Shown piece by piece: positions 52,889 to 63,928 of a DNA stretch of 64,000 nucleotides. The translations under genes were made by a program, and so were the position numbers. The notes beneath the pieces were generated by a model. It was not told the DNA's origin, searched no databases, and saw nothing but the letters and a program-made list of their open reading frames with translations. Origin of the DNA: Paraburkholderia sp. Tr-20389 (GTDB taxonomy: Bacteria; Pseudomonadota; Gammaproteobacteria; Burkholderiales; Burkholderiaceae); contig NZ_JAAGPD010000024.1 of assembly GCF_017104565.1 (NCBI RefSeq), positions 62,001 through 126,000 of the forward strand, in the 5' to 3' direction. Every line of letters begins with the position of its first letter. The first letter of the stretch is position 1.

Positions 52889-52948
52889 TCGCTTTGCGCG
52901 GCAGGCCCATGTGTCGCCGCGCAAATGATGCTGGCAGGAGGTGAAGCC

Positions 52949-53257
52949 ATGAGAGCATTCTTCGAAGGACTGGTGTTGCTGGCGGCAGTGGTGGTGTACT
53001 TTCTGCCCGCCATCGTCGCCGATGCACGCGAACGCGAAGACGCCTTCGCACTGACGATTTTCAACGTGCTGTTCGGTTGGACGGTGATCGGCTGGATTGC
53101 AGCGTACGTGTGGGCGCGTCATCGCGTGAGCGACAAGCGGCTGGCGAACCTCACGACGAACACGCGTCGTTCGCTGGGTCGCGTGACGATTGCGAAGATC
53201 GTGGCGCGTTCGCGCCGGGTGCGTGCGGCGCGGCGTCAGTCGACGCTATCCGCGTAA
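52949..53257 (+). CDS. superinfection-immunity-like membrane protein
   Basis: 102 aa from ATG 52949, with AGGAGGTG upstream. Two transmembrane helices (LVLLAAVVVYFLPAIVADAR and FNVLFGWTVIGWIAAYVWAR) flank a polar loop. LFGWTVIGW in particular is the mark of the Imm-superinfect family first seen in phage T4 Imm. A basic cytoplasmic tail follows. In chromosomes these small proteins are common and need not be phage-derived; no phage genes are near. Confidence 0.78.
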   Translation: MRAFFEGLVLLAAVVVYFLPAIVADAREREDAFALTIFNVLFGWTVIGWIAAYVWARHRVSDKRLANLTTNTRRSLGRVTIAKIVARSRRVRAARRQSTLSA

Positions 53258-53876: not shown

Positions 53877-54174
53877 AGTGTCTCTTCCATGTAGGGACGC
53901 GAAAGCAGGGCTAGCACGCCGCACGCCGCTCGATCCGGTGGCGCTCTCAGTCGCCATGTGGCCATATTGTCCGCCGATGTTGAGTACGCGGCGTGACATC
54001 TTTATGACAGCGCTCGCGAAAATTGACCCAACGCTGTCATCTACGTCGGACAACCTTGAACGCGACCACGCGCCGCCACGCGTTACGCGATGCATCCCAT
54101 GCGTCGTGAATACGCGTACGGCGGCGCGCCTGCAACGGCCGGTCGAAGCGACCGGCGAGCGTCGAGGTGAATCG
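53877..54174. other. divergent intergenic region, no gene seen
   Basis: 298 bases between the Nudix gene and the protease/nuclease fusion gene. The frame of the latter is open through this region, but its translation (many Arg/Ala, no motif) does not look like protein. No consensus promoter was identified with confidence. Confidence 0.3.
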
Positions 54175-56481
54175 ATGAATCCACTGTCCACGCAGCACAA
54201 CTTCCAGAGCCTGTCGCTGAAGGATCTGCTCGAAGCACGCGATCTTTATCACTGGCATCTGACGAACAAGGCCAACGTCGTCGGCACGGCCGTCGGCCTG
54301 TATCTGATCCGCAGTGACGAACCGTGGCCCGATCGGGAGCGCCGCTCGAACGGTCACGCAAAGGCGCGTGCGGAAGGCAAGGGCATCCGCACGTTTGGCA
54401 ACTCGGAAGTGCGTCCGTATTCGTGGCCGGCCGTGATCGTGCTGGTACGCGACTGGGTCGACGCAACCGAGTTCGGTCATGGCAAGGTCGATCCCGATCA
54501 CATGGTGCCGCGTACGCTCTACATGCCAGACGGGCGTGCGGTGCCCGTCTGCGTGGTGGCCGTCGAGCCGACTGCGCCTGCCACCGGCGCGCCCGCGGCT
54601 GCGCGCTGGCCGTCGACGTACATCGGCGGCGGCTGTCCGTTGATCGCGGATACGCAAGGCATCGAACGTACGGCGAGCGTCGGCTGCCTCGTGACGGACG
54701 GCCATACGACTTATGCGCTCACCAACCGGCATGTTTGCGGCGAACCCGGTTCGCCCGTGAAGGCGCTGTTGCGCGGCGCGGTGAATGAAGTGGGTATCGC
54801 CTCCGACCGGCAACTTACGCGCGAACCGTTCACGGCTGTGTTCCCCGAGTTCGCGGGCAGCCGCAGCTTTCTGACGCTCGATGTCGGCCTCGTCGAGGTA
54901 CACGACGCGAATGACTGGTCGAGCCAACCGTTCGGCATCGAAGGCAGCATCGAGTCCGTCGCCGACATCAACGAATTGAGCCTCAGCCTGCAGTTGATCG
55001 ACCAGTCCGTTACGGCGTTCGGCAGTGCATCGGGTGCGCTCGACGGCACGATCAAGGCGCTTTTCTATCGGCACAAGTCGCTTGCGGGCTACGACTACGT
55101 TTCGCAGTTTCTGATCGCGCCCGCGAGCGGCAGTCCGCAGACACAGCCGGGCGATTCGGGAACGCTGTGGTATCTCGTGGCGCCCGCGAACGAGCACGCT
55201 GACGACGAAGGGAATCGCGATGTCCCTGCGCGCAACGGCAGAAAGTCCGACCAGCAGAAGCGTGCGCGCCATCTGTATCCGCTTGCGATCGAATGGGGTG
55301 GACAGACGCTTGCGAGCGACGACGGCCAACGTCTGAACTACGCACTCGCGACGGGGCTGAGCACAGCCTGCCAGTTGCTCGACGTGGATCTCGTGCGCGC
55401 GCAAAACGTCGGCGCCAACCCGTACTGGGGACAAACGGGGCACTACAGCATCGCGACGGCGGCGATCCAATCCGTTAAACAAGGGCCGCTGCGCGATTTC
55501 CTCGAAGCGAACGTCGAGCGCATCAGCTTCCGTCCCGACCAACTGACACCGGAGCAGATTCGCGAGAAGCTGGCGCGTGGCGATTTCGTCGAACTCGCCG
55601 ACGTGCCCGACCTCGTGTGGAAGAAGACGCCCAGCCGTGTGCCGGGTGGACGCGACTATGCGCAGAATGCCGGGCCCGAGCATCCAAATCACTACGCGGA
55701 TATCGATCAGCCCGATGGCGACGGCAAGACGCTGCGCGACGTGACGCTCGGCAATATTGCCAACATGAGCGTTGCCGTGTGGTCGAAGTGGTACGCGGAC
55801 GAGGGCGACACGGATGCGCGCTCCGAAGGTCTGTTGCCGTTCCGCGTGTGGCAAATTTTCGACGAGATGGTCACGCAACTGAAGAAACGTAACGACACGA
55901 ACTTCCTCTGCGCGGCGGGCGTGCTCGCGCACTACGTCGGCGATGCGTGTCAGCCTTTGCATGGCTCGTATCACGCCGACGGCTACAAGGACGCACCCGA
56001 CGCGACGCCGAAGAAGTGGCCCGGCAAGGGCGTGCATGCCACGTATGAAGACAAGATGGTCGACCGTCATTCGAACGAACTGCTGTCGCAGATCGGGCCG
56101 CAGGCCAACGCGTTCGAAGGCGAGATTCCGAAGATCGGCGATGGCCGCGGCGCCGCGTTCGCGACGGTCGCGCTGATGGCCGAGGCCGCGAAAATCCTTG
56201 CGCCTTCGACGCTGATCGACGAGTACATTCGCTTGGGCGGCGGCAGTTCGGCGCGGGTCGTCGATGGTCTGTGGGACGCGTTCGGCGAAGACACCGCGAA
56301 GCTGATGGGCGCGGGCGCCCGCTATCTCGCCGCGATGTGGGAAGCCGCGTATGCCGTCGCCGATACGTCGCTGCCCGCCGGCGAGCGGGAAATCAGCGAG
56401 AAGGCGCTCGCGAAGGTGTATCAGGACAAGACGTTTCTGCCTTCGCTGACGCTCGACAAGATCGGGCCGGTGATCGGCTGA
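54175..56481 (+). CDS. trypsin-like serine protease fused to an S1/P1 nuclease-like zinc domain
   Basis: 768 aa from ATG 54175 (CGAGGTGA upstream). No signal peptide and no membrane segment. N-terminal half: chymotrypsin-fold protease with a complete triad in order, His186 (ALTNRHVCG), Asp236 (LTLDVGLV) and Ser328 (QPGDSGTLW). C-terminal half (about 490-768): HPNHYADID near residue 503, then LAHYVGDACQPLHGSYHADG with His586, Asp590, His596 and His600. These are the zinc-ligand patterns of S1/P1 nucleases and zinc-dependent phospholipase C. A long insert with a charged strip separates the domains. The combination suggests a protease-gated nuclease or lipase effector, but that is inference. Confidence 0.8.
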   Translation: MNPLSTQHNFQSLSLKDLLEARDLYHWHLTNKANVVGTAVGLYLIRSDEPWPDRERRSNGHAKARAEGKGIRTFGNSEVRPYSWPAVIVLVRDWVDATEFGHGKVDPDHMVPRTLYMPDGRAVPVCVVAVEPTAPATGAPAAARWPSTYIGGGCPLIADTQGIERTASVGCLVTDGHTTYALTNRHVCGEPGSPVKALLRGAVNEVGIASDRQLTREPFTAVFPEFAGSRSFLTLDVGLVEVHDANDWSSQPFGIEGSIESVADINELSLSLQLIDQSVTAFGSASGALDGTIKALFYRHKSLAGYDYVSQFLIAPASGSPQTQPGDSGTLWYLVAPANEHADDEGNRDVPARNGRKSDQQKRARHLYPLAIEWGGQTLASDDGQRLNYALATGLSTACQLLDVDLVRAQNVGANPYWGQTGHYSIATAAIQSVKQGPLRDFLEANVERISFRPDQLTPEQIREKLARGDFVELADVPDLVWKKTPSRVPGGRDYAQNAGPEHPNHYADIDQPDGDGKTLRDVTLGNIANMSVAVWSKWYADEGDTDARSEGLLPFRVWQIFDEMVTQLKKRNDTNFLCAAGVLAHYVGDACQPLHGSYHADGYKDAPDATPKKWPGKGVHATYEDKMVDRHSNELLSQIGPQANAFEGEIPKIGDGRGAAFATVALMAEAAKILAPSTLIDEYIRLGGGSSARVVDGLWDAFGEDTAKLMGAGARYLAAMWEAAYAVADTSLPAGEREISEKALAKVYQDKTFLPSLTLDKIGPVIG

Positions 56482-56499
56482 GGACGCGACCGTCGAAGG

Positions 56500-57840
56500 C
56501 TAGGCCGTCGCGAGCTTTTTGCTTTGCTTCGACATGCCTTCGAAGATTGCGGACGCGAGGTCGCGCGGAAAGTCGTGCGGAAGCTGCGCAGCAACGGTGT
56601 CGATGACCTGCTGCGTGGCGTCCGTCACGGCGGCGATCAGGTCGTCGACGGTTTCGCGCGACAAGCCCGCTTGTTGACCTTGCGCGACCCAGTGCCGCCG
56701 CACTATCTGACTGATCAGATAATGATTGCTCGTGCCGCGCACGGCCATCGCCATCTTCGCTTTCTGCATCGGCACGCGATTCGCGCCGCGCCCGATGATG
56801 GGATGCGCGGACAGCACGTCGTAGAGCGGTGTCGCGCGATAGCGGTTGCCGGGCAAATGCGCGATGCTGAAGTTCTTTGCGTGGCCATCCGTTGCGGCAA
56901 GCAGCCAGAAGATCAACTGCGTCTTGAAGAAGCGTGCGCTGTCTCCGGCGGCGTCGACGGAACCGGCCAGAACGTGCATCACGGCATCGATGCCCGGGCC
57001 GCCGTCGGCCTGATATTTCGCAATGGGTGGCGTGCCCGTTGCCTGACACATGTCTTCCTGTGGAAGACGCACGATCCATGTGCCGTCGCTCGACGGCCTG
57101 CGGTCGAAGCGTTCGACGACGAGCGCTTTCCGGTCGCCGAAGTGCCCGATCTCGCAAGCGGCGACAGGCAGGCCGTAGGCGGCGACGATCCGCGAACAGA
57201 GCCATTCGTTTTCCACCGACGTGCGCATGTCGGCCTGCATGTTGCCGACGAGCCCCAGCGGAAGCTTGAGGATGTGCGTGGTCGGGGTGCTGCCCTCGGG
57301 CAGCACCCAGCGGCCCTTGTGGCGCAGCAGCGCCGTTTTCTCCTGTGCGCCCGCGATGGACAGCCGCAGATCGGCGGCACGATCGTGCTGGCCGAGCGGC
57401 GCCGCCGAGGTCGTGTCGCGCAATAACCGGCCGATGTCGGTTGCCGTCAGCGTGTCGCCGCCGATCCGGTAGAGGTCGGAGGGCGCCTCGCCCGGCGGCA
57501 GCAGCTGGATGGCGCCGACGCAGTCGCGCCCGAGCGCGGCAAGCAGGTCGAAGGGCGCCGTGCCGCCCGTCTTGTAGCGCTGCGCCATTCTGCGGCGGAT
57601 CGGTTCGCTATCGGGCAGCAGATTGTCGAAGAACGCCGACACGAGGGCCCCTCGGTACGGCTGGTTGCCCGGCGTGAAAGGCAGGGACAACGACAGCGGG
57701 CGCCCCTGTTCGTCGCCGATCCAGTCGTCGAAATAGACGAGCTGCTCGCCGCTGCCGGACTTTTCCCAGTAGCCGACGGCGAGGCCGTTCATCCACAGAT
57801 CGAGACGTTGGGTGTGCGAGCGGCGCCCCATGCCTACCAT
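56500..57840 (-). CDS. hipA: HipA-family serine/threonine kinase toxin
   Basis: 446 aa. N-terminal HipA domain (LWMNGLAVGYWE, then FFDNLLPDSEPIRRRM), then the kinase-like body: SIAGAQEKTALL (the Gly/Ser loop phosphorylated in E. coli HipA), HILKLPL, and the catalytic ATDGHAKNFS with its D-x-x-x-K-N core. HipA phosphorylates glutamyl-tRNA synthetase in E. coli, causing growth arrest; a related target is likely. Its ATG overlaps the antitoxin stop by seven bases, so the pair is co-translated, antitoxin first. Confidence 0.9.
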   Translation of the reverse strand: MVGMGRRSHTQRLDLWMNGLAVGYWEKSGSGEQLVYFDDWIGDEQGRPLSLSLPFTPGNQPYRGALVSAFFDNLLPDSEPIRRRMAQRYKTGGTAPFDLLAALGRDCVGAIQLLPPGEAPSDLYRIGGDTLTATDIGRLLRDTTSAAPLGQHDRAADLRLSIAGAQEKTALLRHKGRWVLPEGSTPTTHILKLPLGLVGNMQADMRTSVENEWLCSRIVAAYGLPVAACEIGHFGDRKALVVERFDRRPSSDGTWIVRLPQEDMCQATGTPPIAKYQADGGPGIDAVMHVLAGSVDAAGDSARFFKTQLIFWLLAATDGHAKNFSIAHLPGNRYRATPLYDVLSAHPIIGRGANRVPMQKAKMAMAVRGTSNHYLISQIVRRHWVAQGQQAGLSRETVDDLIAAVTDATQQVIDTVAAQLPHDFPRDLASAIFEGMSKQSKKLATA

Positions 57841-58325
57841 TGCTCCCGCTTTCTGGATGCGCTTGCTGGGCGCTTGCGCGTTGCATCGGCGCGCCTGTCC
57901 GATCCCGGTGGAGATTGGCGCACGCCTGTCGCGCCGGCACCGGTTTTCGCGCGCTGGCCCGTCTTGATGGCGGGCGTCTGGCGGGCGGTCGTGGTCGTGG
58001 TCGGGGCGGCAGGTTTGCGCGGAACGGCCTTGGCGGCCGCGGGGCCTTGCGCGGCGGCACGGTTCGACGGCGCGATTTTGGCAGCGGGCGCTGCATTCGC
58101 GGGCGCAGGCTCGTCCTGGCTGAGCGTGATTCCGGCGTTCAACAGGCGCAGGACCTTGAATAGCCGCTCGACGCCGGCGGCGGCCGGGTTGGCCTCGAAC
58201 TGCGCATAGCTTTGCTGCGTGATGCCGAGCCGCTCGGCGAGCATCGCCTGCGTGAGTCCAGCGGCTTTGCGAAAGCCGCGCAGAACGGGCCGCAACTGGC
58301 CAAGCGTCTTGACGGAATAATCCAC
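57834..58325 (-). CDS. hipB: HipB-like Xre-family antitoxin with long basic tail
   Basis: 163 aa from GTG 58325 (GAGG six bases upstream). HTH at residues 10-65: RPVLRGFRKAAGLTQAMLAE and RLGITQQSYAQFEANP. The remaining 90 residues are an Ala/Pro/Thr/Lys/Arg-rich disordered tail ending in SASRKREQW. E. coli HipB has only 88 residues, so the tail is an addition. It should neutralise HipA and repress its own promoter at the dyads just upstream. Confidence 0.85.
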   Translation of the reverse strand: MDYSVKTLGQLRPVLRGFRKAAGLTQAMLAERLGITQQSYAQFEANPAAAGVERLFKVLRLLNAGITLSQDEPAPANAAPAAKIAPSNRAAAQGPAAAKAVPRKPAAPTTTTTARQTPAIKTGQRAKTGAGATGVRQSPPGSDRRADATRKRPASASRKREQW

Positions 58326-58410
58326 GGCGGGCCTCAAGAGAGACGGGTTGAACGCGGGGCAGGGCGTCGATCCGGCACGGGCAGCGTCCGCACTGCCGTC
58401 CTTCGGAAGC

Positions 58411-58439
58411 AGGATACAGGTCGCAGACTGTATTGACAA
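58411..58439 (-). promoter_or_regulatory. hipBA promoter
   Basis: On the minus strand, TTGTCA (complement of 58434-58439) and TATCCT (complement of 58411-58416) are 17 bases apart. The -35 sits in the centre of the operator dyad, so HipB binding would block RNA polymerase. Confidence 0.55.
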
Positions 58440-58449
58440 TATACAGTCT
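58425..58449. promoter_or_regulatory. hipBA operator dyads
   Basis: AGACTGTAT (58425-58433) and ATACAGTCT (58441-58449) are a perfect nine-base inverted repeat with a seven-base spacer. A second, imperfect pair (AACTGTA ... TACAGGTT) follows at about 58453-58475, and a further CTGTAC near 58485. The repeated CTGTA/TACAG half-sites are the likely HipB binding sites. Confidence 0.7.
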
Positions 58450-58664
58450 ATGAACTGTAAATTAAAAATACAGGTTAAAAGCTGTACAAACTTCCCGCGG
58501 CGGCAGCACATTGGATTGCGAGGGTTTCGCAAACTGCCCGTGCGTTGCGCTGCAACGCAAGCATTCCGTCAGCACGGGTACGTGAAGTGCTGACGAACGC
58601 TCATTCGGCCGCACGATCAGGCGACGGCGACCCGATCGACAGTCACAACAAGGGAGGTAAAGCC

Positions 58665-60385: not shown

Positions 60386-60411
60386 TTTCAACAATCCTTG
60401 AACTATTGAAA
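60386..60411. promoter_or_regulatory. probable ArsR operator
   Basis: A dyad of TTTCAA (60386-60391) and TTGAAA (60406-60411) with internal TTGAA half-sites, ending about 20 bases before the arsR start. Position and TTCAA/TTGAA half-sites suit an ArsR-family operator. Confidence 0.5.
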
Positions 60412-60432
60412 CGATGGATCTATGATGCCGTC

Positions 60433-60765
60433 ATGGACTCGAACCTTGTCGTACGCGCGCTTGGCGCGCTAGCTCATGAATCCCGGCTCGCGATCTTCCG
60501 TGCGCTCGTCGTTGCGGGTCCGGAGGGCATGCCTGCGGGCGAGATAGCACAACAGCTCGGACTGTCGCCATCGAGCCTGTCATTCCATCTGAAGGACCTT
60601 TCGCACGCCGGACTCGTTACGGGTCTGCAGGAAGGGCGCTTCATCTACTACTCGGCCAACTTTGACGCGATGAATGGACTCATCGGGTTTCTCACCGAGA
60701 ACTGTTGTGCGGGTGCAGCCTGTGGAGTTGGGGCAGCCCCGCAATGCCGGGGAGCGGCAACATGA
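60433..60765 (+). CDS. arsR: arsenic-responsive ArsR repressor
   Basis: 110 aa from ATG 60433; a TTG at 60406 would lie inside the operator dyad. Winged helix: RALGALAHESRLAIFRALVV, then QLGLSPSSLSFHLKDLSHAG. The metal site is C-terminal: Cys91-Cys92 plus Cys97 (ENCCAGAACG), like the Acidithiobacillus ArsR type and unlike the CVC-in-helix type of R773. It should leave DNA on binding As(III). Its stop overlaps arsI by four bases. Confidence 0.92.
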   Translation: MDSNLVVRALGALAHESRLAIFRALVVAGPEGMPAGEIAQQLGLSPSSLSFHLKDLSHAGLVTGLQEGRFIYYSANFDAMNGLIGFLTENCCAGAACGVGAAPQCRGAAT

Positions 60766-61220
60766 AGCGTATGCACATCCACATCGCTGTTGAGAACCTT
60801 GAGGCGAGTACCCGCTTCTACACCGCCATGTTCGGAGGCGCCGAGCCGACAGTATCGAAGTCCGACTATCGCAAATGGGAACTGAGCGACCCGAAGGTCA
60901 ACTTTGCTATTTCGCAGCGAGGCGTAAAGCCGGGAGTCGATCATCTTGGCATTCAGGTCGAGACTGACGAGGAACTGGCTGAGATGCGAGAGCGTTTCGC
61001 AAGCGCCGAATTGCCTGTGATGGACCAGACGGCAACTACCTGCTGCTATGCGAAGTCGGATAAATCATGGACCGTCGACCCTCAAGGAGTGGCTTGGGAG
61101 ACCTTCCGCACATTGGAGACGGCGCCGACTTACGGACAGTCGCGACGCGATCCTGAGCCCGATGCGGCGGCATGTTGTGCACCTGCCCCTGCGACGATCA
61201 CCTTCCGGAGCCGCGCGTGA
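60762..61220 (+). CDS. arsI: ArsI-type C-As lyase (VOC superfamily, CadI-like)
   Basis: 152 aa from ATG 60762. Vicinal-oxygen-chelate fold. His5, His61 and Glu113 match the Fe(II) ligands of ArsI, and the Cys94-Cys95 pair in ATTCCYAKSDKSW matches its trivalent arsenical binding site. Such enzymes demethylate methylarsenite and other trivalent organoarsenicals. The tail has an extra CC near residue 141. Overlaps both neighbours by four bases, so translation of arsR-arsI-acr3 is tightly coupled. Confidence 0.88.
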   Translation: MKRMHIHIAVENLEASTRFYTAMFGGAEPTVSKSDYRKWELSDPKVNFAISQRGVKPGVDHLGIQVETDEELAEMRERFASAELPVMDQTATTCCYAKSDKSWTVDPQGVAWETFRTLETAPTYGQSRRDPEPDAAACCAPAPATITFRSRA

Positions 61221-62287
61221 GCAGTGTGGATCGAGCGGCAGACCGCTCTCGTACGCCAACGATCGGCTTCTTTGAACGTTACCTGACAGTATGGGTCGCG
61301 CTTTGCATCGTTACCGGCATCGTCCTCGGCCACTGGCTGCCGCCAGTGTTCCAGGCGATTGGTCGCATGGAGGTGGCGCAGGTTAACATTCCCGTCGGTG
61401 TACTCATCTGGGTCATGATCGTGCCGATGCTCATCAAGATCGACTTCGGTGCGATGGCGCAGGTAAAGGGACACTGGCGCGGCATCGGCGTCACGCTGTT
61501 CGTGAACTGGCTCGTCAAGCCGTTTTCGATGGCACTGCTCGGCTGGATCTTCGTTCGCCATGTTTTCGCCGGGTGGTTGCCGTCGGCACAGCTGGACAGC
61601 TACATCGCAGGACTGATTCTGCTTGCAGCTGCGCCGTGTACCGCGATGGTGTTTGTCTGGTCGCAGCTTTGCAAGGGCGACCCGTACTTCACACTCTCAC
61701 AGGTCGCACTCAACGATGCCATCATGATCGTCGCCTTTGCGCCGATCGTTGCGCTGTTGCTGGGCCTGTCAGCGATCACGGTGCCGTGGGACACGCTCAT
61801 CACTTCGGTTGGCCTCTACATCATCATTCCGGTTGTTATCGCACAGCTCATGCGTCGCCAGTTGCTTGCGCATGGGGATGCACACTTCAAACGCACGGTC
61901 TCGCGGCTGGGCCCGTATTCGATCAGTGCGTTGCTCGCGACGCTCGTACTGCTCTTCGCGTTTCAGGGACAGGCCATTGTCAGTGAGCCGATGGTGATCG
62001 CGATGCTCGCGGTACCAATCCTGATCCAGGTGTTCCTGAACTCGAGCCTTGCCTATCTGCTCAACCGCAGGCTGGGTGTCGCGCACTGCGTAGCCGGTCC
62101 ATCGAGCCTGATCGGCGCAAGCAATTTCTTCGAGCTGGCCGTGGCAACTGCAATCAGCCTGTTTGGATTCCAGTCGGGCGCCGCGCTCGCGACGGTTGTA
62201 GGTGTGCTGATCGAAGTGCCTGTCATGCTGCTGGTTGTCGGCGTCGTGAACCGGTCGCAGCATTGGTATGAAACCCGGACGCATTGA
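61217..62287 (+). CDS. acr3: arsenite efflux permease Acr3
   Basis: 356 aa from GTG 61217, which overlaps the arsI stop. Ten hydrophobic segments. The conserved cysteine of ACR3 proteins is in LLAAAPCTAMVFVWSQLCKG, and the family signatures FVNWLVKPFSMALLGWIF and AIMIVAFAPIVALLLG are visible. It exports As(III) using the proton gradient. Confidence 0.94.
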   Translation: MSSVDRAADRSRTPTIGFFERYLTVWVALCIVTGIVLGHWLPPVFQAIGRMEVAQVNIPVGVLIWVMIVPMLIKIDFGAMAQVKGHWRGIGVTLFVNWLVKPFSMALLGWIFVRHVFAGWLPSAQLDSYIAGLILLAAAPCTAMVFVWSQLCKGDPYFTLSQVALNDAIMIVAFAPIVALLLGLSAITVPWDTLITSVGLYIIIPVVIAQLMRRQLLAHGDAHFKRTVSRLGPYSISALLATLVLLFAFQGQAIVSEPMVIAMLAVPILIQVFLNSSLAYLLNRRLGVAHCVAGPSSLIGASNFFELAVATAISLFGFQSGAALATVVGVLIEVPVMLLVVGVVNRSQHWYETRTH

Positions 62288-62296
62288 GGATTGACG

Positions 62297-63124
62297 ATGA
62301 GCATCACCATCTATCACAACCCCGACTGCGGCACCTCGCGCAATGTACTCGCGCTCTTGCGCGAAGCAGACGAGAACCCGCTTGTTATCGAATACCTGCA
62401 GAACCCGCCCGATCGAGCGACGCTTGAGCGCCTCATTGCCGACAGTGGAATGGCGGTCAGAGATGTGCTGCGGGTCAAGGGCACCCCCTACAAGGAACTG
62501 CGGCTCGGTGATCCGGCGTTGAGCGACGCTCGACTCATCGATGCAATGCTGGCCCATCCGATTTTGATCAACCGGCCTTTCGTCGTGACGCCACGTGGCA
62601 CGCGTCTTTGCAGGCCGTCTGATGAAGTGGTTGGCCTGCTTGGGATCACACCCGAGCGGGAGATCCTGAAGGAGGAAGGCGTGCCATTCGTAGTTGGCCG
62701 CCCGATCTCGGGTGACGATCCTGGCTTTGTGCAGGCACTGCGCGATGCTGAGCTTCCCAGCGTCGATCTGAAGGAGCCGGGCCGCTCGTTCTTCGCCTTT
62801 TCAACCCTGACAGGTTCCCATTTAGGCTACGGCGGTTTCGAGCAATTCGGTCAGGATGGACTCATCCGGTCGCTCGTCATAGCGTCGGAGCATAGGGGTA
62901 AAGGTATCGGTCGCAACGTGCTTGCCGTCCTGCTGCGTGCAGCGTTCGATGCGGGCTCCCGTACCGCGTGGCTGCTCACAACGAACGAATCGGCGTTCTT
63001 CGAGAAGTCCGGTTTCAAGCCGGTCAACCGCGGCGCGGCTCCCGCCGCGATCGTGGGCTCGCGTCAGGCTGCAGACCTGTGTCCGTCAAGTGCCGTCCTG
63101 CTCTCGCGCGCCATCACCCTTTAA
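62297..63124 (+). CDS. arsC: arsenate reductase fused to an ArsN-like GNAT acetyltransferase
   Basis: 275 aa from ATG 62297. Residues 1-115: glutaredoxin-type ArsC, with catalytic Cys11 in HNPDCGTSRN, then KGTPYKEL and LINRPFVVTPRGTRLCRP. Residues about 135-275: GNAT acetyltransferase, with acetyl-CoA loop RSLVIASEHRGKGIGRNVL and the late segment SAFFEKSGFKPVNR. In separate genes the GNAT is annotated ArsN, implicated in arsinothricin resistance. The fusion joins arsenate reduction with possible acetylation of an arsenical; stop-to-start spacing to arsH is 12 bases. Confidence 0.9.
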   Translation: MSITIYHNPDCGTSRNVLALLREADENPLVIEYLQNPPDRATLERLIADSGMAVRDVLRVKGTPYKELRLGDPALSDARLIDAMLAHPILINRPFVVTPRGTRLCRPSDEVVGLLGITPEREILKEEGVPFVVGRPISGDDPGFVQALRDAELPSVDLKEPGRSFFAFSTLTGSHLGYGGFEQFGQDGLIRSLVIASEHRGKGIGRNVLAVLLRAAFDAGSRTAWLLTTNESAFFEKSGFKPVNRGAAPAAIVGSRQAADLCPSSAVLLSRAITL

Positions 63125-63136
63125 TCGCCAGCTCCA

Positions 63137-63928
63137 ATGCAGACCGATCTTCCGAACATCAGTGCTCTTCATCTGGACACACCCGACCTCGCGAAGCTGG
63201 AACCACGCGCGATATCGCAACACCCGCCACGCATTCTTCTTCTGTACGGTTCATTGAGGCCGACGTCATACAGCAGGTTGCTGACACTAGAGGCCGAGCG
63301 AATCCTTCAGCAGTTTGGAGCGGAGACGAAGGTGTTCGATCCGCACGGCCTGCCGCTGGCCGATAGCGTGCCTCTGGATCATCCAAAGGTCGTCGAGCTG
63401 CGCGCGCTATCAGTGTGGTCCGAGGGACAGGTGTGGTGCAGCCCGGAGCGTCATGGCGCACTCACCGGGGTTTTCAAGAACCAGATCGATTGGCTTCCAC
63501 TGGATTCCGGCAGCATCCGCCCGACGCAGGGTCGCACGCTGGCCGTCATGCAGGTATCCGGTGGCTCGCAATCATTCAACGCAGTCAACGCGCTGCGCGT
63601 GCTAGGCCGCTGGATGCGCATGGTGACGATCCCGAACCAGAGTTCCGTTGCCAAGGCGTATCAGGAGTTCGATGAGAATGGACGGATGAAGCCCTCGTCG
63701 TACTACGATCGCGTGGTCGATGTGATGGAAGAACTCTACAAGTTCACGCTGCTCGTACGTGACCGTTCGGATTATCTGACCGACCGATACAGTGAGCGAA
63801 AGGACCGGGCGCCTGCAAACGTCACCGAGCTCGCCAACGCAGCCATGAGCCATGAGCACGACGCTCAAATAGCCGAACCAGTACCTTTTGCGGCGAATCA
63901 CGGATTTCAGCTTCAACACGCCCATTAA
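63137..63928 (+). CDS. arsH: ArsH NADPH-dependent FMN oxidoreductase
   Basis: 263 aa flavodoxin-like protein. FMN loop [17 protein letters not shown] near residue 34, then [20 protein letters not shown] and [20 protein letters not shown], all ArsH hallmarks. ArsH oxidises trivalent methylated and aromatic arsenicals to less toxic pentavalent forms. Last recognisable gene of the operon; the 72 bases after it hold no feature I can support. Confidence 0.93.

What the first reader, a model, noticed from the sequence alone, without database searches (positions are those of the whole stretch)
54175..56481. Cytoplasmic trypsin-like protease fused to an S1/P1-nuclease or phospholipase C-like zinc domain
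One 768-aa protein contains a complete His186-Asp236-Ser328 triad and, further on, the H-x3-D-x5-H zinc pattern of S1/P1 and zinc-PLC enzymes, without any signal peptide. Both enzyme classes are normally exported. A protease domain that controls a nuclease or lipase inside the cell is an architecture expected of a conflict or suicide effector, and I know of no described system with it.
Basis: partly seen in the sequence, partly recalled or inferred. Interest (0 to 1): 0.7.

Follow-up and report, generated by a model that had tools for sequence, protein, structure and literature searches.

The report
Protease fused to a zinc pro-nuclease
A soil bacterium makes one protein that joins a protein-cutting enzyme to a zinc enzyme of the S1/P1 nuclease family, and the evidence suggests that the first part cuts the second loose to switch it on, probably as an emergency or self-destruct device.

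Summary
The 768-aa ORF (54175-56481, +) is a NAL1-type trypsin-fold protease (residues 1-409, triad H186/D236/S328) followed by an S1/P1-nuclease / zinc-phospholipase-C domain (418-768), with no visible signal peptide. Structure prediction plus Foldseek supports both folds. Fifty sequences with both domains (the window's included), from eight phyla, keep all nine zinc ligands, including Trp418. In characterised members of this superfamily the equivalent Trp is the free N-terminus and joins the zinc cluster; in the eight free-standing relatives my searches returned it directly follows a signal-peptide-like leader. In the fusion the protease takes that place, with a low-confidence linker of nearly constant length before Trp418. 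My reading: a cytosolic zymogen whose protease frees Trp418 to complete the zinc site. Cleavage, substrate and trigger are untested. A conflict or suicide role is likely but inferred. PADLOC already holds a full-length model, named only 'trypsin-like', and one family member lies beside the solved Bradyrhizobium tropiciagri gasdermin; the window's genome has no gasdermin match. I found no description of this combination or maturation logic in the searches listed; three key papers were not held. New variant of a known kind: the protease-activated nuclease.

The parts
54175..56481 (+). Fusion gene, 768 aa: NAL1-type protease + S1/P1-PLC zinc domain
54175..55401 (+). NAL1-type trypsin-like protease module, residues 1-409 (conserved N-terminal part ~1-130, then chymotrypsin fold)
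   Evidence: Foldseek ranks 1-34 are rice NAL1; profile A4 vs PDB NAL1 E 6e-17
54730..54732 (+). Catalytic His186
   Evidence: H in 49 of 50 two-domain sequences, one gap
54880..54882 (+). Catalytic Asp236
   Evidence: D in 49 of 50, one gap
55156..55158 (+). Catalytic Ser328
   Evidence: S in 50 of 50
55300..55302 (+). Residue 376, after W374-G375 (taken by eye as chymotrypsin W215-G216 at the S1 pocket); co-varies with the residue before Trp418
   Evidence: G in 33 of 33 rows with Y/F at 417, never G in 16 rows with T/S
55402..55425 (+). Linker, residues 410-417; residues 413-418 have pLDDT < 50; putative cleavage between Y417 and W418
   Evidence: 13 residues between V404 and W418 in 48 of 50 rows, 14 in 2
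55426..56478 (+). S1/P1-nuclease / zinc-PLC domain, residues 418-768, beginning WGQTGH
   Evidence: Model pLDDT 92.2, pTM 0.93; Foldseek; Pfam match starts at 418 = profile position 1
55426..55443 (+). W418-G-Q-T-G-H423: Trp1 and His6 equivalents of P1 nuclease (numbering recalled)
   Evidence: W418 and H423 50 of 50; aligns to residue 1 of AtBFN2
55609..55692 (+). Zinc ligands D479 and H506
   Evidence: 50 of 50 each
55930..56049 (+). Zinc ligands H586, D590, H596, H621, E625
   Evidence: 50 of 50 each
56500..58532 (-). HipA gene (56500-57840) and HTH/HipB-like gene (57834-58532): absent together with the fusion at the empty site in one relative; functional link not shown
   Evidence: HipA_C 4e-50, Couple_hipA 2.9e-21, HTH_3 1.9e-11; empty site

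Best explanation
The protein is a cytosolic zymogen. The C-terminal domain is a three-zinc phosphodiesterase of the S1/P1-PLC superfamily, more likely a nuclease than a phospholipase. It stays inactive while 417 residues precede Trp418, because Trp418 can complete the zinc site only as a free N-terminus. On an unknown trigger the NAL1-type protease domain cuts its own chain, or a neighbour's in an oligomer, before Trp418 and releases the active hydrolase, which damages the cell's (and an invader's) nucleic acid or membrane. It thus does in the cytosol what signal peptidase or a propeptide protease does for exported relatives. Shown here: predicted folds, active sites, invariance of the nine ligands, linker position, the signal-peptide comparison, family spread. 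Inferred: cleavage, its site, the substrate, the trigger, and the conflict/suicide role.
For: (1) W418 and the other eight ligands are invariant in 50 of 50 two-domain sequences, window included, although W418 lies mid-chain. (2) In 8 of 8 free-standing relatives returned by my searches (L010; L078-L084), WGxxGH directly follows a hydrophobic leader with A, G or S just before the Trp (by eye and hydropathy). An S1/P1 gene next to the fusion in L055 shows the same. (3) Literature passages: one residue added before W1 turns off Listeria PC-PLC, whose propeptide a protease removes (PMC10576769); N-terminal Trp26 of S1 nuclease and Trp27 of SmNuc1 join the zinc cluster (PMC5201275, PMC11705217). 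(4) Residues 413-418 are a low-confidence linker; V404-W418 spacing is 13 residues in 48 of 50. (5) Residue 417 varies less than 414-416 (1.74 vs 2.67-2.84 bits), and of 411 N-terminal positions only 376 separates Y/F from T/S at 417 completely (33 vs 16 rows). (6) The protease module came with the zinc domain in 4 of 4 plasmid records, and no protease match other than the window's own appeared in 369 genomes of the class. (7) For conflict: PADLOC whole-length match; one member about 190 bp upstream of a gasdermin identical over residues 2-259 to PDB 7n50; remnants in 4 of 59 relatives against 4 of 59 full-length; empty site in G021.
Against: No cleavage was observed or modelled; the domain arrangement is uncertain (pTM 0.57) and coordinates could not be measured. 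Residue 417 is not one residue (Y 25, T 14, F 8, S 2, R 1 of 50); its variability is ordinary for the whole protein (43% of positions are as conserved or more), and 413 and 411 are about as constrained or more (1.34 and 1.77 bits). The 417/376 co-variation may reflect only one or two evolutionary switches. Two Leifsonia relatives encode the zinc domain alone with a 17-residue leader, beside an NlpC/P60 gene, and their genomes gave no NAL1-type match, so the Trp can be preceded by a leader without this protease. L028 has a broken frame and lacks H186 and D236. The genome scan used patterns from the zinc domain only, so it could not find the protease module alone; one weak partial match to the protease part of the PADLOC model (G266, E 6.9e-4) was not resolved. 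Gasdermin occurs in 1 of 49 searched genomes and not in the window's own. No partner gene stood out, and defence enrichment of neighbours was not tested against a control.
Confidence: 0.6

Rival explanations
1. The protease is the executioner of a gasdermin-type or other trans substrate, and the zinc domain is a second effector or a targeting module that is cut or freed incidentally.
For: In Bradyrhizobium tropiciagri the fusion gene is followed on the same strand by the gasdermin solved as 7n50, and that fusion gives 853 bits to PADLOC's 'trypsin-like' model. A commentary says that caspase-like proteases are clustered with and cut bacterial gasdermins and that C-terminal truncation of the Bradyrhizobium gasdermin causes cell death (PMC9079055, passages).
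Against: Only 1 of 49 searched genomes with the family has a gasdermin match, and the window's genome has none. All nine zinc ligands are kept in 50 of 50 sequences, so the zinc enzyme is under its own selection.
Confidence: 0.15
2. The zinc domain works uncleaved, with two or three metals and an internal Trp; the protease has an unrelated regulatory or quality-control role, and the protein is a housekeeping hydrolase.
For: No cleavage shown; Leifsonia zinc domain with a leader and no NAL1-type match in the genome; the 25 neighbour families shown of 118 are mostly metabolic or transport.
Against: W418 is invariant in 50 of 50 although mid-chain; one extra residue inactivates Listeria PC-PLC; patchy presence, remnants and an empty site are unlike a housekeeping gene.
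Confidence: 0.15
3. The released domain is a phospholipase C that attacks the membrane from inside rather than a nuclease.
For: Foldseek gives PC-PLC of Bacillus cereus and Listeria next to SmNuc1 and S1; the last ligand is Glu (E625), as recalled for PC-PLC, where P1 has Asp; Zn_dep_PLPC gives a weak Pfam hit.
Against: The sequence profile hits only nucleases in PDB (8 of 8 listed, best AtBFN2 6.5e-6, several above 0.05); Pfam S1-P1 scores better than PLPC (5.5e-5 vs 0.0068).
Confidence: 0.25
4. The protein is exported by a route without a Sec signal and is matured outside the cell.
For: The characterised relatives cited here are exported enzymes (and recalled).
Against: No N-terminal hydrophobic segment; no secretion genes recur in the capped neighbour lists.
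Confidence: 0.05

Closest known systems
PADLOC-DB PDLC03017 'trypsin-like' / the protease gene beside the Bradyrhizobium tropiciagri gasdermin (L065)
   Same: Same architecture over the whole length.
   Different: The window gene has no gasdermin nearby, and its genome gave no gasdermin match. The PADLOC name covers only the protease. That the model belongs to the gasdermin system is my inference.
Nuclease-protease pairs of Hachiman, AVAST, Lamassu, DRT (Tuck et al., PMC12799240; outline, first of six text parts, and passages)
   Same: Trypsin-like protease activates a pro-nuclease; [quoted passage not shown]
   Different: There the nuclease is an MBL-fold enzyme in a separate gene, unmasked by site-specific cleavage, and the protease is fused to a defence enzyme. 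Here the enzyme is S1/P1-type, in the same chain, with a ligand-generating logic and no known sensor.
NucA-trypsin systems (Kaur et al. 2020, PMC7159879, passages) and LypC of Caulobacter (PMC13236601, section 9 and passages)
   Same: Trypsin-like protease and endonuclease in one protein; a proteolytic cascade was predicted for NucA.
   Different: NucA/HNH endonuclease, with STAND or CARD-NLR genes in operons; LypC endonuclease residues were dispensable for lysis. Here the zinc S1/P1 fold and no such operon seen.
Rice NAL1 (7y77, 8pmg, 8hau and others)
   Same: Same protease fold over ~430 alignment columns and homologous sequence.
   Different: A plant protein; no zinc-hydrolase domain in the listed structures.
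Exported S1/P1 nucleases and zinc phospholipases C (S1, P1, SmNuc1, AtBFN2, PC-PLC)
   Same: Fold, nine ligands, Trp1-His6 motif.
   Different: Those have leaders or propeptides removed by other proteases (recalled in general); here a resident protease stands in front.

Membership tests
NAL1-type trypsin-like protease | NAL1 fold and sequence homology | tested here: met
NAL1-type trypsin-like protease | Complete His-Asp-Ser triad | tested here: met
NAL1-type trypsin-like protease | Hexamer (recalled for rice NAL1) | not testable with these tools
   Single-chain prediction only
S1/P1 nuclease - zinc PLC superfamily | All-helical fold | tested here: met
   Ranks 1-29 in PDB for the domain model; E-values modest (2.7e-3 at best)
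S1/P1 nuclease - zinc PLC superfamily | Nine zinc ligands (positions recalled from P1/PLC) | tested here: met
   50 of 50 sequences
S1/P1 nuclease - zinc PLC superfamily | Trp1 is the actual N-terminus | not testable with these tools
   Needs processing in the fusion; inferred only
S1/P1 nuclease - zinc PLC superfamily | Pfam PF02265 gathering score 29.5 bits | tested here: not met
   20.8 bits whole protein, 23.6 bits domain: a divergent member by fold and ligands, not by this cut-off
S1/P1 nuclease - zinc PLC superfamily | Nuclease (not phospholipase) activity | not testable with these tools
   Profile leans to nucleases
PADLOC 'trypsin-like' (PDLC03017) | Match over the whole model | tested here: met
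   15-764 vs 10-608 of 611, 4.4e-61; all three pieces match
Bacterial gasdermin system | Gasdermin gene with the protease | tested here: not met
   No match in the window's genome; 1 of 49 searched genomes with the family
Hachiman/AVAST-type nuclease-protease pair | Separate MBL-fold pro-nuclease gene and protease fused to a core immunity enzyme | tested here: not met
   Partner domain is S1/P1-PLC fold in the same chain; neighbours are NUDIX, HipA, HTH, phosphoesterase
NucA-trypsin / LypABC CARD-NLR | NucA-type endonuclease domain | tested here: not met
NucA-trypsin / LypABC CARD-NLR | STAND/CARD-NLR gene in the operon | tested here: inconclusive
   Not among the window's nearest neighbours. 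For 135 neighbour ORFs of relatives, the 25 PADLOC families shown of 33 include none

The most novel reading that the evidence does not exclude
A self-contained death switch in one polypeptide: a NAL1-type protease acts as an internal stand-in for signal peptidase and switches on a zinc nuclease by creating one of its metal ligands, the free amino group of Trp418. This would be a third chemistry of proteolytic activation in prokaryotic immunity, beside gasdermin tail removal and MBL-nuclease unmasking. It would work alone in most genomes and together with a gasdermin pore in at least one.
Probability: 0.4. Interest if true: 0.8.

Novelty: new variant of a known kind. Interest (0 to 1): 0.62.

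Why it matters
It makes a general question testable with one purified protein: can a cytosolic protease domain arm an enzyme class that is otherwise armed by export? Tuck et al. think further proteolytically activated enzyme classes in prokaryotic immunity possible; this family is a concrete candidate, with a precise predicted cut (Tyr417/Trp418), a predicted chemistry, a natural specificity swap (Y/F versus T/S lineages), and one member next to a gasdermin with a solved structure whose native activating protease may be this protein.

Tried and rejected
Rejected: 'undescribed architecture', because PADLOC PDLC03017 matches end to end. Rejected: LypC as the same fusion, because its endonuclease is NucA-type. 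Rejected: a conserved partner gene. All-against-all clustering of 3416 flanking ORFs from 58 loci (56 genome loci, 2 plasmid loci, recounted) gave 317 clusters, 92 with three or more loci and 14 with five or more; of these 14, eleven are the fusion gene or frames overlapping it, and three are generic and scattered (SDR-like and ABC ATPase by eye, sensor kinases by Pfam for one member). Rejected as support: PADLOC PycC hits among neighbours, most likely ordinary guanylate cyclases. Phage records gave no match (0 of 50,697) and IMG/VR none that was confirmed (69 pattern stretches). Geometry between Ser328 and the 417-418 bond could not be measured (no model coordinates in the box). Foldseek against viral proteins gave nothing at E <= 0.001. 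The GC3-based neighbour gene calls missed at least one gene (NlpC/P60 in L068). A search aimed at NAL1 structure papers gave nothing useful; one search gave nothing on NAL1 in bacteria but led to the Kaur paper. Two weak plasmid hits to the zinc domain (H15, H16, E 0.04) were not examined.

Rows dropped: from the 56 genome loci, L026 (frame break), L027 (masked bases over the Trp region) and L028 (frame break; Tyr at 186 and no Asp at 236) were left out of alignment A3 (53 of 56 kept, plus the window). Of its 54 rows, 50 have both domains; the other four are L040 and L073 (cut by contig ends) and L068 and L069 (zinc domain only). L028 is a result against strict triad conservation, or a decaying copy. 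In one search itself several loci were read in a wrong frame; the counts replace it. For the neighbour scan, ORFs farther than 2.5 kb or longer than 620 aa were left out (136 kept), and I dropped one more, giving 135. For the gasdermin search, L033 and L050 were not held, and L031, L034, L040, L066, L072 and L073 were not given.
Full report
WHAT IS THERE. The ORF at 54175-56481 (+) encodes 768 aa. The genome is a Paraburkholderia: G014, listed as same genus, has a contig of the same length and a match at the same position as the plasmid record of Paraburkholderia sp. PREW-6R. Pfam gives only weak hits (S1-P1_nuclease 20.8 bits, Nal1_C 15.5, Zn_dep_PLPC 15.1; all below gathering scores); NCBIfam gives none. 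PADLOC gives one strong hit over the whole length, PDLC03017 'trypsin-like' (4.4e-61; residues 15-764, model 10-608 of 611); the N-terminal part, the protease part and the zinc part each match their own stretch of that model.

FOLDS. A full-length AlphaFold2 model on a 54-row family alignment has mean pLDDT 83.7 and pTM 0.57, so domains are mostly confident and their arrangement is not. Ranks 1-34 of its PDB matches are rice NAL1 (best E 1.5e-19), followed by alpha-lytic-type proteases among the 50 rows shown. A profile of the protease part finds NAL1 at 6e-17. A separate model starting at Trp418 has pLDDT 92.2 and pTM 0.93. Ranks 1-29 of its PDB matches are S1/P1 nucleases or proteins of the zinc-PLC/alpha-toxin fold; E-values are modest (2.7e-3 at best, above 0.1 from rank 24), but the list is unmixed down to rank 29. 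A profile of this domain finds AtBFN2 (6.5e-6), SmNuc1, S1, P1 and TBN1, the later ones weakly.

FAMILY. Full-length relatives occur in 4 of 59 relatives besides the window's genome; remnants occur in 4 of 59 (G005, G014, G017, G019); G049 has a free-standing S1/P1-like gene. In 300 genomes of the order, 3 match PDLC03017 including the window's own, one of them weak and partial (G266). Among 72,556 plasmid records 5 match, 4 over at least 80%; two of these four are annotated as split genes. One scan of the genome collection (84,980 species) with two patterns from the zinc domain gave 94 stretches and 56 confirmed loci; it could not have found the protease module alone. A tree of 49 rows spans eight phyla by record title and needs five changes for Pseudomonadota, which fits transfer but does not prove it. 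In 50 sequences with both domains, the window's included, S328 and all nine zinc ligands are 50 of 50; H186 and D236 are 49 of 50 with one truncated row.

THE TRP ARGUMENT. In S1 nuclease and SmNuc1 the N-terminal Trp takes part in the zinc cluster (PMC5201275, PMC11705217; passages). In Listeria PC-PLC one extra residue before W1 turns activity off, and a protease removes the propeptide (PMC10576769; passages). In the window protein the equivalent W418 lies mid-chain, directly after the protease module, in WGQTGH. In 8 of 8 free-standing relatives that my searches returned (L010; L078-L084), WGxxGH directly follows a hydrophobic leader with A, G or S before the Trp (by eye and hydropathy). 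The most hydrophobic 12 residues of those leaders average 1.88-2.86, against a median of 1.24 and a maximum of 1.71 in the first 50 residues of the fusions. A ninth case, the S1/P1 gene beside the fusion in L055, agrees. So the protease occupies the place of the leader. The junction fits a cut: residues 413-418 have pLDDT below 50; there are 13 residues between V404 and W418 in 48 of 50 sequences and 14 in 2; residue 417 is Y, F, T or S in 49 of 50 and less variable than 414-416. Against this, 417 is of ordinary variability for the protein as a whole, and 411 and 413 are as constrained or more. Of 411 N-terminal positions, 376 alone separates Y/F rows (33, always G) from T/S rows (16, never G) without overlap. 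By the W374-G375 match to chymotrypsin W215-G216 (by eye, recalled numbering) it lies at the S1 pocket. The tree needs two switches, and one is not excluded, so this is suggestive only.

CONTRARY RESULTS. Two Leifsonia genomes carry the zinc domain as its own gene with a 17-residue leader, next to an NlpC/P60 gene (PF00877) and without a NAL1-type match in the genome, while the same search rang in 3 of 3 other family genomes. L047 has Arg before the Trp and Asn at 327. L028 has a broken frame and lacks H186 and D236. No cleavage has been seen.

CONTEXT AND ROLE. The window's neighbours are a NUDIX gene upstream and, downstream, a HipA gene, an HTH gene and a phosphoesterase. No partner gene stands out across loci. 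Scanning 135 neighbour ORFs from 43 loci with PADLOC gave 33 families, 25 shown; one is a bacterial gasdermin: L065:10550-11326, about 190 bp downstream of the fusion in Bradyrhizobium tropiciagri, identical to PDB 7n50 over residues 2-259. That fusion scores 853 bits against PDLC03017, so the PADLOC model was probably built on the gasdermin-associated protease (inference). A gasdermin match occurs in 1 of 49 searched genomes and not in the window's genome. In one relative (G021) the upstream flank (to window 54076) continues after about 160 bp with window 58542, so the fusion and the HipA/HTH genes are missing together; in G005 the fusion is reduced to its ends while the downstream HipA region remains. 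This picture of gain and loss fits a costly conflict gene, but I ran no enrichment control.

WHAT IT MOST LIKELY IS. A cytosolic zymogen in one chain, in which the NAL1-type protease frees Trp418 and thereby completes the three-zinc site of a nuclease-like hydrolase (0.6). Nuclease is more likely than phospholipase (sequence profile and Pfam scores), but the last ligand is Glu as recalled for PC-PLC. The trigger is unknown.

KNOWN OR NEW. Proteolytic activation of a nuclease by a trypsin-like protease is published (PMC12799240; outline, first of six parts and passages), and so are trypsin-NucA fusions (PMC7159879; passages) and LypC (PMC13236601; section 9 and passages). Ten literature searches were answered; eight bear on this architecture and two on its parts. 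In their listings, which show at most 30 titles each, and in the papers opened I saw no trypsin plus S1/P1 fusion. The library lacks Johnson 2022, Johnson 2024 and Wein 2025, which may mention it. I file it as a new variant of a known kind.

Noticed in passing
L068:8001-9107 and L069:8001-9107 (+), with L068:7127-7939 and L069:7155-7952 (+): In two Leifsonia genomes the zinc domain is a separate gene with a short non-signal leader before the invariant Trp, directly after an NlpC/P60 gene (PF00877) that looks secreted by eye: possibly a swapped activating partner.
   Followed up: partly
L065:8001-11326: The fusion gene is followed about 190 bp downstream by the B. tropiciagri gasdermin (PDB 7n50); the fusion may be that gasdermin's native protease.
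   Followed up: partly
window 54077-58541; L090:1307-1466 (G021): Empty site: the fusion and the HipA/HTH pair are absent together, with the NUDIX and phosphoesterase flanks about 160 bp apart.
   Followed up: yes
L091 (G005), L093 (G019), L092 (G017): Decayed copies: in G005 the two ends of the gene remain in one open frame; in G019 and G017 only a C-terminal piece remains.
   Followed up: partly
L055:10335-11195 (+): In Mesorhizobium sophorae an S1/P1 nuclease gene (PF02265, 4.9e-48, match starting at its Trp29) with a leader lies directly downstream of the fusion gene.
   Followed up: partly
L079:1288-3261 (G683): A free-standing S1/P1-like relative is fused to a C-terminal cyclophilin-type domain (PF00160, 2.8e-20).
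   Followed up: partly
window 60406-63928 (+): Arsenic-resistance-like cluster read by eye: ArsR-type regulator, glyoxalase-type protein, arsenite permease, ArsC-like and ArsH-like genes.
   Followed up: no
window 52925-53257 (+): Small membrane protein matching Pfam 'Superinfection immunity protein' (PF14373, 1.5e-19).
   Followed up: no
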